Positions 31,384 through 49,047 of a stretch of 64,000 bases of DNA are shown one piece after another. Source of the stretch: Myxococcus xanthus. GTDB taxonomy: Bacteria > Myxococcota > Myxococcia > Myxococcales > Myxococcaceae. The stretch is taken from positions 871,001-935,000 of the forward strand of contig NZ_CP017174.1 in assembly GCF_006402735.1 (NCBI RefSeq), written 5' to 3'. The notes beneath the pieces are model-generated. The model was not told the DNA's origin, ran no database searches, and was given only the letters and a program-made list of their open reading frames with translations. Position numbers and translations under genes: made by a program. Each line of letters starts with the position of its first letter. The stretch's first letter is position 1.

Positions 31384-31800
31384 TCACGGGCGTTGAATCG
31401 CCAGGATTCGGTGCTTCGCCACCTCGACGGCGTAGGTGGAGCCCATGTCCGCGACGGGACCGTCCTTGTCACAGGCGCCGTCCTTGACGGTGAACCGGAC
31501 GAAGACCACGCCCTCTGGCCCTGGGGCCACTGTCACGTCAAACGACTCCCGTCGATACAGGCACACCTCGTCGGGTGTGGCGCCTCGGTGAGGCTTCACA
31601 CCCAGCGGGCGGAAGTCGTCCATCGCCAGCGAGATGGCCGCCGCCAGGTCCGCGGGAATCCGCACGCGTCCATCGGCTGGGAGGTCGATGGGGAACGTGA
31701 ACCGGGCCGCCTCATCCGCGGGCGCACGCTCCGGTTTCAGGGGCCGGTGGAAGAGGCCACAGGCGGGCAGCGTGAGGCAGAGCAGCAGGCGGCGCGACAT
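31384..31800 (-). CDS. Lipoprotein, paralogue of the gene at 48628-49047
   Basis: A 138-residue lipoprotein. The start MSRRLLLCLTLPACGLF has GGAGGG upstream and a lipobox LPAC. The mature part includes FTFPIDLP, AMDDFRPLG and ATPDEVCLYRRESFDV; the paralogue shows FVFPLGFP, AMDDFLPRD and ATPDEVCLAQRSSYDV. Three conserved Cys are retained. It follows the JAMM-type gene on the same strand, as in the other copy. Function unknown; the pair probably works together in the periplasm. Confidence 0.75.
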   Translation of the reverse strand: MSRRLLLCLTLPACGLFHRPLKPERAPADEAARFTFPIDLPADGRVRIPADLAAAISLAMDDFRPLGVKPHRGATPDEVCLYRRESFDVTVAPGPEGVVFVRFTVKDGACDKDGPVADMGSTYAVEVAKHRILAIQRP

Positions 31801-31829
31801 GTTCCCTCCTGACTCCGGCAACATGGAGT

Positions 31830-32432
31830 TCAAGCTTCATCGACGGGAGTGATGAAACCAATGAGCTTCCAGGTCTTTCCTTGCCGAACGTACACTTCGC
31901 CAGGGCGGCCAGGGTCATCCATGTGCGGTATCAGCTTCATGACTCGGCACTCTGCGTCGAACTGGATGCGGATGACCCAGCGCTGATTTTTCGCACGCCT
32001 GTCCTCAGGAGACATGGGGGAAGGGAACCACGGATGGCTGTGGTAATCCGCGAGGATTGAGGCGTAGCCCCGAGAGTCATTGACGTGTCGAGGGGAGTGG
32101 CAGCTCTTTCGCTTGTCCTCGAAGACAATCGTCGTCCGACTCTATGGAGATGGAAAGCTGGCGTAGTGCATGCCATCCCGCAGCGTGTAGATGGCACCGC
32201 AGTATTCCTGGCCGAAGTCCTTCGCCCGGGCGCCATCCATCTCCATGATGGCCGGGCAGGGTTGGTCGATGACGTCATCAATGTCACGAGAAGGGTGAAT
32301 CGCTGGCCAAGGGCCCCGTACCCATACATCGCCATTCTTGCGGCCAAAGTAATGCCCGGTGCCTGTCCGAACGTACGACTGGCCACTGCATCCAAGTGCC
32401 AGGACTAGCAATACGAGTCGACTGTTCCTCAT
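31830..32432 (-). pseudogene. JAMM-type lipoprotein gene, copy 1, with an in-frame TAG
   Basis: One frame of 200 codons runs from ATG 32432 to a stop at 31830 but is cut by a TAG at about 32142 (after YASFPSP). The N-terminal part is a lipoprotein (LALGCSGQ) with VWVRGPW and QEYCGAIYTL. The part after the TAG has the motif DYHSHPWFPSPMSPED, matching the JAMM signature H-x-H-x7-S-x2-D of zinc isopeptidases. The copy at 47965-48606 reads Leu (TTG) where this one has TAG, a single-base difference. Either a recent nonsense mutation, a readthrough case, or two separate products. Confidence 0.7.
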
Positions 32433-47868: not shown

Positions 47869-47964
47869 GGATGGGCAGGGCCGGATTGGCTCTATCCCGT
47901 TGAATCCTGGTATTTGGCGCTTCGCACGTCCGCGACTTGAGCGGGCGTTTGAGGCGGGGGCGCC

Positions 47965-48606
47965 ATGCCACTTCGTGGGTTGATGGTATTCGTCGCGCTC
48001 CTGGCGTGCGCTTCGGGTGACGAGTACACCCGACGAGGCGCCGACACGCTATTCGGGCGTCGAGGCCCCCACGTCTGGGTTCGCGGCCCCTGGCTCGAAG
48101 TAGAACCTTCTCGCGACGTGGATCAGGTCATCGACCAGTTGTGTCCCGCCATCATGAAACTTCCACGGGCGACAGCGGGGCATTAAGGCCAGGAGTACTG
48201 CGGCGCCATCTACACCTTGGGAGACGGCGTCTATTACGCGAGTCACGGCTCGCCCTTGGGCAAGACGACGGGCGTCGTTGGCGCGGAGAAGCGCAAGTCC
48301 TGCATCCCGCCGAGCAGTGTCGTTGATTCGCGCGGCCGCACCGTGACCTTGGCGGACTACCACAGCCATCCCTGGTCTCCTTCTCCGATGTCCGTGTTCG
48401 ACTTCCAGAACCGGACCCAGGTCTGGCTCATCCGTATCCAGTTCGACGTGGCCTGCACCGTCATGAAGTACGTTCCGCACAAGAACACCCCACGGCCGGG
48501 AGAGGTCTACTTGCGGCGAGAGCGACGTTGGAGACTGGTGGGGTTGCTCGAAAGCGAGCGAGACAAGGAGTTGGGAATCGTCACGCCCGTGGAAGGCGAC
48601 ACTTAG
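47965..48606 (+). pseudogene. JAMM-type lipoprotein gene, copy 2, with an in-frame TAA
   Basis: One frame from ATG 47965 to TAG 48606 is interrupted by TAA at 48184-48186 (after LPRATAGH). The N-terminal part is a lipoprotein (VALLACASGD) with VWVRGPW; the part after the stop has QEYCGAIYTL, EKRKSC and the JAMM motif in DYHSHPWSPSPMSVFD (H-x-H-x7-S-x2-D). Copy 1 reads Phe at the aligned position. It is followed by the lipoprotein paralogue, the same order as in copy 1. Interpretation as for copy 1: inactivated gene, readthrough or split product. Confidence 0.7.
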
Positions 48607-48627
48607 GTGTCGATGCCGGGAGTCGTC

Positions 48628-49047
48628 ATGCGCCGCGTGGTTCTTCTACTCTCGTGTTTGTCGCTATCTGCGTGCTCGCTGTTCCAGCGTCCGTTTCGCC
48701 CCGCGCATGCACCGCCCGAGGAGTCGGCGAGGTTCGTGTTTCCCTTGGGTTTTCCTCCGGGGGAGCACACCTTCATTCCTGCAACCATCTCCACCGCGGT
48801 CGGGCTGGCGATGGATGACTTCTTGCCGAGGGACGCGAAGCCGCCCAAGGAGGCGACACCCGATGAGGTGTGTCTCGCGCAGCGAAGTTCGTATGACGTA
48901 TTGGCGAAGGCGCTATCCGACAGCGTCGTGTTGGTTTCGTTCTCACCCAAGGAGGGGGCCTGTGTTCAAGAAGGCACTGCCCTGGATGTGGGCGCGACGT
49001 ACGCGGTCGATGTAGACGGCTGGCGCATCCTGGCCGTTCAGCGATGA
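48628..49047 (+). CDS. Lipoprotein, paralogue of the gene at 31384-31800
   Basis: A 139-residue lipoprotein beginning MRRVVLLLSCLSLSACSLF (lipobox LSAC), with GGGAG six bases before ATG 48628. Shared blocks with the paralogue are FVFPLGF, AMDDFLPR and ATPDEVCL. It is intact although its JAMM partner is interrupted. Its stop overlaps a possible amidohydrolase start (ATGA at 49044). Confidence 0.75.
   Translation: MRRVVLLLSCLSLSACSLFQRPFRPAHAPPEESARFVFPLGFPPGEHTFIPATISTAVGLAMDDFLPRDAKPPKEATPDEVCLAQRSSYDVLAKALSDSVVLVSFSPKEGACVQEGTALDVGATYAVDVDGWRILAVQR

What the first reader, a model, noticed from the sequence alone, without database searches (positions are those of the whole stretch)
31384..32432. 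JAMM-lipoprotein plus lipoprotein module, present twice
A gene pair at 31384-32432 (minus strand) is repeated at 47965-49047 (plus strand). In both, a lipoprotein with a JAMM motif (H-x-H-x7-S-x2-D) is followed by a small lipoprotein containing AMDDF and ATPDEVC. JAMM peptidases normally sit in the cytoplasm; lipidated versions for the periplasm or outer surface are not a described system that I know of.
Basis: partly seen in the sequence, partly recalled or inferred. Interest (0 to 1): 0.75.

Follow-up and report, generated by a model that had tools for sequence, protein, structure and literature searches.

The report
Lipid-anchored JAMM protease with paired antidote
Myxobacteria carry many copies of a two-gene unit, a membrane-anchored JAMM-type protease followed by a small membrane-anchored partner that is kept even when the protease gene is lost, so the pair looks like a weapon and its antidote.

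Summary
J–S is a multi-copy cassette confined, in what I searched, to Myxococcaceae (61 of 195 Myxococcota genomes). Intact J is a lipoprotein with a JAMM fold, conserved E/H/H/S/D and four further conserved cysteines, which fits the periplasm. S is a lipoprotein of weakly cystatin-like predicted fold. In 125 clusters examined, J precedes S wherever both occur (120 of 120). J is damaged with S intact in 19; the reverse occurs in none. Orphan S genes stay under purifying selection. At the window's own sites, one relative deleted J but fused its lipoprotein signal in frame to S, and another lost J and kept S. Immunity genes behave this way. Best reading: a compact lipidated JAB/JAMM toxin with a lipoprotein immunity protein. 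It works like SitA/SitI and Tox-JAB/Imm pairs, but the tested defining features of SitA (escort domain, non-transferred immunity) are not met. Delivery, substrate, activity and toxicity are untested. S would travel with J, so delivery by outer-membrane exchange is doubtful.

The parts
31830..32432 (-). J copy 1: JAMM-type lipoprotein gene, interrupted by one in-frame stop
   Evidence: translation; intact orthologues at the same site in L094, L099 and L057
32142..32144 (-). in-frame TAG (codon 97) in J copy 1
32001..32042 (-). HxHx7SxxD motif of J copy 1 (HSHPWFPSPMSPED)
31384..31800 (-). S copy 1: small lipoprotein, 138 aa, intact; proposed immunity protein
31747..32369 (-). stretch absent in relative G018 (ends ambiguous by 3 bases); the deletion joins the J signal peptide and lipobox in frame to mature S (L201 10228-10653)
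47965..48606 (+). J copy 2: JAMM-type lipoprotein gene, interrupted by one in-frame stop
   Evidence: translation; intact 97% identical orthologue in G018 (L015/L050)
48184..48186 (+). in-frame TAA (codon 74) in J copy 2, just before the QEYCG active-site stretch
48361..48402 (+). HxHx7SxxD motif of J copy 2 (HSHPWSPSPMSVFD)
48628..49047 (+). S copy 2: small lipoprotein, 139 aa from this ATG, intact; proposed immunity protein
47869..49047 (+). stretch with the J-S cassette of copy 2; in G023 the same flanks are separated by only 80 unaligned bases, and in all 18 loci L333-L350 by 55-849 bases, too few for a whole pair

Best explanation
J–S is a compact toxin/immunity cassette of the cell envelope. 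J is exported, lipidated, probably braced by disulfides, and carries a JAMM zinc-peptidase site. It would cut a peptide or isopeptide bond in the periplasm or on the envelope of a neighbouring cell. S, the next gene, is a lipoprotein with a cystatin-like predicted fold; it sits in the same compartment and blocks J in the producing cell. Cassettes are gained and lost as units at intergenic sites. J is often lost (as in both window copies), while S is kept because neighbouring strains still make J. Shown by sequence or prediction: export signals, motif, J fold, gene order, unequal decay, orphan S under selection, cassette presence/absence. Inferred: disulfides, protease activity, toxicity, inhibition by S, target and delivery route.
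For: (1) J then S in 120 of 120 clusters with both, the toxin-immunity order described in PMC3482391 (passage). (2) Unequal decay: of 125 clusters, both intact 101, J disrupted with S intact 19, J intact with S disrupted or absent 0. If lesions fell by gene length alone, all 19 in J has P about 7e-5; for the 14 with clear internal lesions about 9e-4. (3) Orphan S: of 38 distinct S regions picked for having no full-length J listed beside them, 31 show no detectable J and 7 a partial J (one cut by a contig end). One orphan S is syntenic in 8 genomes while a ninth, G006, has the full pair; dN/dS is 0.08-0.24 for every pair compared with dS above 0.2. (4) G018 deleted J but kept S behind J's own lipoprotein signal; G015 lost J at the copy 2 site with the break 5 bases beyond the J stop and S kept. 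(5) Site residues in 102 intact J: E 100, H 102, H 100, S or T 101, D 100. dN/dS below 0.3 in 19 of 24 J pairs and 23 of 24 S pairs. (6) J and S distances correlate over 90 loci, r 0.82, 0 of 999 permutations as high; linked inheritance alone would also give this. (7) S model: top row a designed cystatin fold (Z 6.9); lower rows include chicken cystatin (5.5), an Aspergillus metalloproteinase entry (4.3) and colicin M immunity protein (4.2).
Against: No toxicity, binding, activity or delivery data exist. Zhang et al. suggest that toxin JAB domains may be nucleases, and a Salmonella survey labels DUF4329 effectors RNases (PMC10469887, passages). J has no recognised translocation or escort domain. 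Neither J (101 scored) nor S (130 scored) has Asp at +2, so by the usual (recalled) sorting rule both would be outer-membrane lipoproteins and would travel together in outer-membrane exchange, protecting the recipient. The fold evidence for S is weak: Z below 8, with NTF2-like, YpeB and amine-oxidase domains scoring alike, and Foldseek best E 0.35. Whole J aligns across paralogues, with no swapping of a toxin tip. Orphan S under selection could also mean that S has its own job. Lesions in related genomes are not fully independent; five of the 19 are N-terminal only or in a distant copy.
Confidence: 0.6

Rival explanations
1. J is a house-keeping or signalling envelope protease and S its regulator, chaperone or substrate; no antagonism. 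Multiple copies reflect paralogue expansion, and S has an additional role that keeps it when J is lost.
For: Most intact pairs of both genes are under purifying selection; both proteins have the same kind of anchor; no toxin-delivery domain; the copy 1 site is shared and collinear in several genomes of the genus.
Against: Patchy presence and sites without the cassette, up to 15 J matches in one genome, which is also the scoring cap, frequent J loss, and no intact J without S in 125 clusters fit a conflict gene better.
Confidence: 0.22
2. A SitA-like weapon delivered specifically by TraA/TraB outer-membrane exchange (a subset of the best explanation).
For: J is a lipoprotein without Asp at +2, and outer-membrane lipoproteins are cargo of exchange (PMC8546572, introduction read). 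The same gyrA-side site is filled in three relatives by a different lipoprotein followed by a small DUSAM protein without an evident signal peptide.
Against: No ~375-residue escort domain; S is itself a lipoprotein and would be transferred too, unlike SitI. TraA/TraB dependence not tested.
Confidence: 0.25
3. Dying gene family: J is simply no longer useful and decays neutrally; S is lost more slowly because it is shorter.
For: In this genome 3 of 5 close J copies carry stops.
Against: 101 of 125 clusters are intact with site residues kept; dN/dS below 0.3 in 19 of 24 J pairs; length-corrected probability of the asymmetry 7e-5 to 9e-4; orphan S under selection.
Confidence: 0.1
4. J acts on prey or other species (for example on vesicles) rather than on kin, with S as self-protection.
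For: A secreted lipidated enzyme plus self-protection would look the same in sequence; no call separates this from the best explanation.
Against: Many divergent paralogues and orphan S retention suggest exposure to J from close relatives carrying other alleles.
Confidence: 0.12

Closest known systems
[quoted passage not shown] 2012, PMC3482391; passages and section 26 read)
   Same: JAB-superfamily domain with E, HxH, S, D next to an immunity gene, toxin first; Imm65 has a signal peptide and lipobox
   Different: There the JAB domain is predicted as the toxin module of classical polymorphic toxins, with RHS repeats or other secretion types. J is a stand-alone ~200-aa lipoprotein. DUF4329 matches are below its cut-off where shown; S matches no Imm family at E up to 1.
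SitA/SitI lipoprotein toxins of Myxococcus (PMC5562445, passages read; PMC8546572, introduction and passages read)
   Same: Myxobacteria; multi-copy lipoprotein toxin with a downstream partner gene; variable presence
   Different: J has no escort domain and no nuclease tip; S is a lipoprotein rather than a non-transferred immunity protein
JAMM/MPN+ peptidases: Pyrococcus JAMM1, archaeal Rpn11 homologue, AMSH, CBASS Cap3, desampylase
   Same: Fold and metal-site motif
   Different: Those are, as I recall, intracellular enzymes acting on ubiquitin-like proteins; J is exported, lipidated and has four extra conserved cysteines
Cystatin-like inhibitors and colicin M immunity protein (fold comparison only)
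   Same: S model aligns to chicken cystatin 1cew (Z 5.5, 78 residues, rmsd 4.5) and colicin M immunity 2xgl (Z 4.2, 75 residues, rmsd 4.2)
   Different: Z below 8, so it may be only a common arrangement; 6-13% identity in rows of this kind

Membership tests
JAMM/MPN+ (JAB) metallopeptidase | Upstream Glu plus HxHx7SxxD metal site | tested here: met
   E 100, H 102, H 100, S or T 101, D 100 of 102 intact J; residues also present in both broken window copies. Distant members have a shorter spacing
JAMM/MPN+ (JAB) metallopeptidase | JAMM fold | tested here: met
   AlphaFold2 model of intact orthologue L050, pLDDT 91.7; the 50 listed rows are JAMM/MPN fold by title or recall, best 5ld9_B Z 7.6, rmsd 3.4, 110 residues. 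Moderate: no Z of 8 or more, and Foldseek best E 5.6e-3 with none at 0.001
JAMM/MPN+ (JAB) metallopeptidase | Profile match over the curated cut-off | tested here: inconclusive
   Prok-JAB in 28 of 34 members at E<=1, best 2.3e-6; the intact orthologue of copy 2 matches only DUF4329, 11 bits against a cut-off of 28.6
JAMM/MPN+ (JAB) metallopeptidase | Zinc-dependent (iso)peptidase activity | not testable with these tools
   needs purified protein
Bacterial lipoprotein (both J and S) | Signal peptide ending in a lipobox Cys | tested here: met
   C15 in 34 of 34 J; C16 in at least 90% of 40 S; starts chosen by script; no SignalP run
Tox-JAB-2 (DUF4329) polymorphic toxin | DUF4329 profile over cut-off | tested here: inconclusive
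   16 of 34 members match at E<=1, best 0.0069
Tox-JAB-1/2 polymorphic toxin | JAB as the toxin module of a large secreted polymorphic toxin (RHS, T6SS, T7SS and others) | tested here: not met
   J is a ~200-aa stand-alone protein
Tox-JAB / toxin-immunity pair | Downstream partner gene, toxin first | tested here: met
   J then S in 120 of 120 clusters with both; immunity function itself not tested
SitA/SitI (OME toxins) | ~375-aa N-terminal escort domain | tested here: not met
   about 35 residues lie between the lipid Cys (15) and the JAMM domain (from ~50)
SitA/SitI (OME toxins) | Immunity protein that is not transferred (cytoplasmic, as recalled) | tested here: not met
   S has its own signal peptide and lipobox; its transfer itself was not tested
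SitA/SitI (OME toxins) | TraA/TraB-dependent delivery | not testable with these tools
   traA distribution was not searched either
Imm65 / Imm-NTF2-2 immunity proteins | Sequence-profile match of S | tested here: inconclusive
   40 S scanned against Pfam, only unrelated single-member matches at E<=1; whether Pfam holds both Imm families was not checked
Known anti-phage defence or phage protein | PADLOC or PHROGs match | tested here: not met
   0 of 5 proteins (3 J, 2 S) in either library at E<=0.1; no tblastn match of one J in phages or plasmids. NCBIfam: one of 34 J matches an anti-phage cap2_3 model at E 0.099

The most novel reading that the evidence does not exclude
A lipid-anchored JAMM peptidase used as a cell-envelope weapon between myxobacterial kin: it would cut a periplasmic peptide or isopeptide bond in neighbours, with a cystatin-like lipoprotein as antidote. 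This would be a protease-type addition to the nuclease-dominated kin-discrimination arsenal and a non-ubiquitin, extracytoplasmic use of the JAMM fold.
Probability: 0.35. Interest if true: 0.8.

Novelty: new variant of a known kind. Interest (0 to 1): 0.6.

Why it matters
Zhang et al. [quoted passage not shown] A lipidated, cysteine-rich J outside the cytoplasm would instead point to a peptidase acting on an envelope substrate. It would add a protease class, with its antidote in the envelope, to the kin-discrimination loci of social bacteria. The natural S-only fusion and the orphan S genes give ready-made comparisons for a test.

Tried and rejected
Considered and dropped: stop-codon read-through as a genuine code (intact relatives exist); S as a ubiquitin-like substrate of J (predicted order is helix then four strands, and the C-terminal consensus has no Gly-Gly tail); a phage or plasmid origin; a named defence system. 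Foldseek gave nothing for S at E below 0.35. PDB sequence searches gave only weak rows (the 2kks row for J reappears in the fold search). Literature: one search lists 3 papers with JAMM, lipoprotein and Myxococcus, none on this by title or abstract start; one search lists 13 unrelated papers for DUSAM; one search lists 20 of 28, none relevant by title or abstract start. Only open-licence PMC papers were searched, so any 'not described' is limited, of which most papers were seen as listings only. PMC10469887 was seen as passages. The third Foldseek job was not used and traA was not searched.

Limits of the counts: the 120 fetched loci are a hand-picked part of the hits. Contig-edge and short fragment hits were often left out. 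One search scored at most 15 candidates per genome and did not list all matches, so J may be undercounted against S. Of the 19 J lesions, four are N-terminal only (L054, L083, L097, L175) and one is a distant copy (L144). L063, with a stop near the J C-terminus, was counted as intact. L187 has both genes damaged and counts as two clusters. Of 40 orphan-S regions one (L221) held no S and one (L222) repeated L203; both were dropped, leaving 38. Four of the 38 already had a short J remnant listed. L239 is cut by a contig end. The orphan S of G021 (L238) is flagged with a stop. In one search, pairs with win1, win2 or L044 include a broken J. In one search six of the 27 genus genomes could not be compared at the copy 2 site, because the gene used as anchor was matched there only by a paralogue or fragments.

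Full report
What is in the window. The two gene pairs are present as stated. In each, a frame starting with a lipoprotein signal (LALGC, LLAC) contains QEYCG and HxHx7SxxD and is followed on the same strand by a 138-139 residue lipoprotein. The second gene is intact in both. I call the first gene J and the second S.

How common it is. In the window's own genome (one contig, 9.3 Mb) there are 6 J matches and 9 S matches. Three of the five close J copies carry a stop; none of the 8 S matches, one of them partial, does. Searching 195 Myxococcota genomes with the J alignment gave matches in 61, in 8 of 90 genera, all in the window's own family, with up to 15 matches in one genome, which is also the scoring cap. 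S was found in 62 of 96 genomes of that family, in 8 of 26 genera. A scan of 84,980 species genomes with one short conserved pattern returned 59 relatives. Their titles are Myxococcaceae genera or unplaced Myxococcaceae, except four loci labelled Comamonas. Those contigs match in length contigs of G024, which the genome tool places in the window's genus, so the label looks wrong.

What J is. Thirty-four intact J proteins align over their length with an invariant lipobox cysteine and four further invariant cysteines (60, 79, 113, 164). Among 102 intact J stretches the site residues are kept: E in 100, first H in 102, second H in 100, S or T in 101, D in 100; the four cysteines in 101-102. The model of the intact orthologue L050 has mean pLDDT 91.7. 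The 50 rows of the structural second look are JAMM/MPN-fold proteins by their titles or, for some chains, by recall; the best is Pyrococcus JAMM1 (Z 7.6, rmsd 3.4 over 110 residues). Foldseek's own best E is 5.6e-3, with none at 0.001. Pfam Prok-JAB is matched by 28 of 34 members at E up to 1 (best 2.3e-6) and DUF4329 by 16 (best 0.0069). NCBIfam desampylase matches 12 of 34 weakly (best 0.0024). The short HxH pattern on its own is at chance level in the window, so the conserved whole carries the weight.

What S is. Forty S proteins share two invariant cysteines, 82 and 112, besides a nearly invariant lipobox cysteine; over 131 intact S stretches both cysteines and Tyr125 are invariant. No Pfam family fits. 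The model (pLDDT 87.7) is mainly one long helix and four strands after the signal. Foldseek finds nothing better than E 0.35. The second look lists a designed cystatin fold first (Z 6.9), then YpeB, NTF2-like and amine-oxidase domains, chicken cystatin (5.5) and, lower, colicin M immunity protein (4.2). These Z values are under 8 and are a hint only.

How the two genes behave. I fetched 120 regions and added the window: 125 clusters. J comes before S in 120 of 120 clusters with both. Both are intact in 101; J is disrupted and S intact in 19; J is absent and S intact in 1; S is a fragment without J in 3; and in 1 J is disrupted with no S within 700 bases. No cluster has an intact J with S missing or broken. 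If lesions fell by length alone, all 19 landing in J has probability about 7e-5, and for the 14 with clear internal lesions about 9e-4. Related genomes are not independent, so these figures are guides.

S without J. Of 38 further S regions picked because no full-length J was listed beside them, 31 show no J at all and 7 a partial J, one of them cut by a contig end. One such S is syntenic in eight genomes of the genus without J, and in a ninth (G006) the whole pair is there. Its dN/dS is 0.08-0.24 for every pair compared with dS above 0.2, pairs with G006 included; closer pairs, with few changes, run up to 0.63. So S appears to be held by selection where J is gone. In 24 orthologous pairs dN/dS is below 0.3 for 19 J and 23 S comparisons; the highest, 0.57, involves a broken J.

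The window's own sites tell the same story. At the copy 1 site, between a gene that reads as gyrA and a PfkB-like sugar kinase gene (both named by eye), 4 of 27 genus loci hold J-S (intact in G001, G023 and G017, broken in the window), G018 holds S alone and 22 hold neither. In G018 a deletion of about 620 bases removed most of J and joined J's signal peptide and lipobox in frame to mature S, a 141-residue lipoprotein. At the copy 2 site the pair is intact in G018; in 18 further loci (L333-L350) the flanks lie 55-849 bases apart, too close for a whole pair. In G015 J is gone and S kept, with the break 5 bases beyond the J stop. Keeping S, and keeping it lipidated, is what an immunity gene would need.

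A second module at the same site. In G006, G021 and G024 the copy 1 site instead holds a different cysteine-rich lipoprotein followed by a DUSAM-domain protein (TIGR02267, E 1e-55 or better in the two examined; G021 seen as DNA only). In the window's genome four of five DUSAM genes follow such a lipoprotein, and two of those lipoproteins are damaged. But at one of these two sites the DUSAM match is itself partial, and one further lipoprotein relative has no DUSAM match beside it. So this module is a parallel worth study. It supports exchange of lipoprotein cassettes at one site, and does not by itself show the same one-sided decay.

Comparison with what is known. Zhang et al. 2012 (PMC3482391; passages and section 26) predicted JAB-domain toxins with immunity genes, including an immunity family with signal peptide and lipobox, and suggested that the toxin JAB domains may be nucleases. 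DUF4329 also caps candidate Rhs effectors in Salmonella, labelled RNases there (PMC10469887, passages). SitA lipoprotein toxins of Myxococcus (PMC5562445, PMC8546572; [quoted passage not shown] J-S works like these pairs, but is not a SitA member by the features tested, and is not shown to be Tox-JAB-1 or -2. The main difficulty is delivery: neither J nor S has Asp at +2, so both would be expected in the outer membrane and S would travel with J.

Verdict. The best-supported function is a lipidated JAMM-type toxin with a lipoprotein immunity partner (0.6). The toxin step, the chemistry, the substrate and the delivery route are inferred.

Noticed in passing
L302 2447-3244; L306; L307 691-1500 (gyrA-side site of other genomes): A different cassette, a cysteine-rich lipoprotein followed by a DUSAM-domain protein (TIGR02267), occupies the site where the window has J-S copy 1. 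Lipoprotein relatives occur in 20 of 27 genus genomes; in the window's genome four of five DUSAM genes follow one, two of these lipoproteins being damaged.
   Followed up: partly
L244, L259, L269, L280: Contigs titled Comamonas sp. KCTC 72670 (BNCN01) equal in length contigs of G024, which the genome tool places in the window's genus: the public label looks wrong.
   Followed up: partly
own genome G000: All seven full-length J-S or S loci tested lie within 10% of the chromosome length from the contig start (chance about 1e-5 if uniform, but chosen after seeing it); a partial S lies just outside, and the pattern is weaker in G017 and G021. Contig start not checked against the origin.
   Followed up: partly
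L139, L145, L147, L170, L172, L231; L058, L065, L076, L095, L100: Tandem S: two S domains in one open frame, or two S genes after one J, reminiscent of the polyimmunity described in PMC3482391.
   Followed up: no
L073, L085-L088, L055, L046, L103: More distant JAMM lipoprotein subfamilies, several with a shorter HxH-to-Ser spacing, each again followed by an S-like gene.
   Followed up: no
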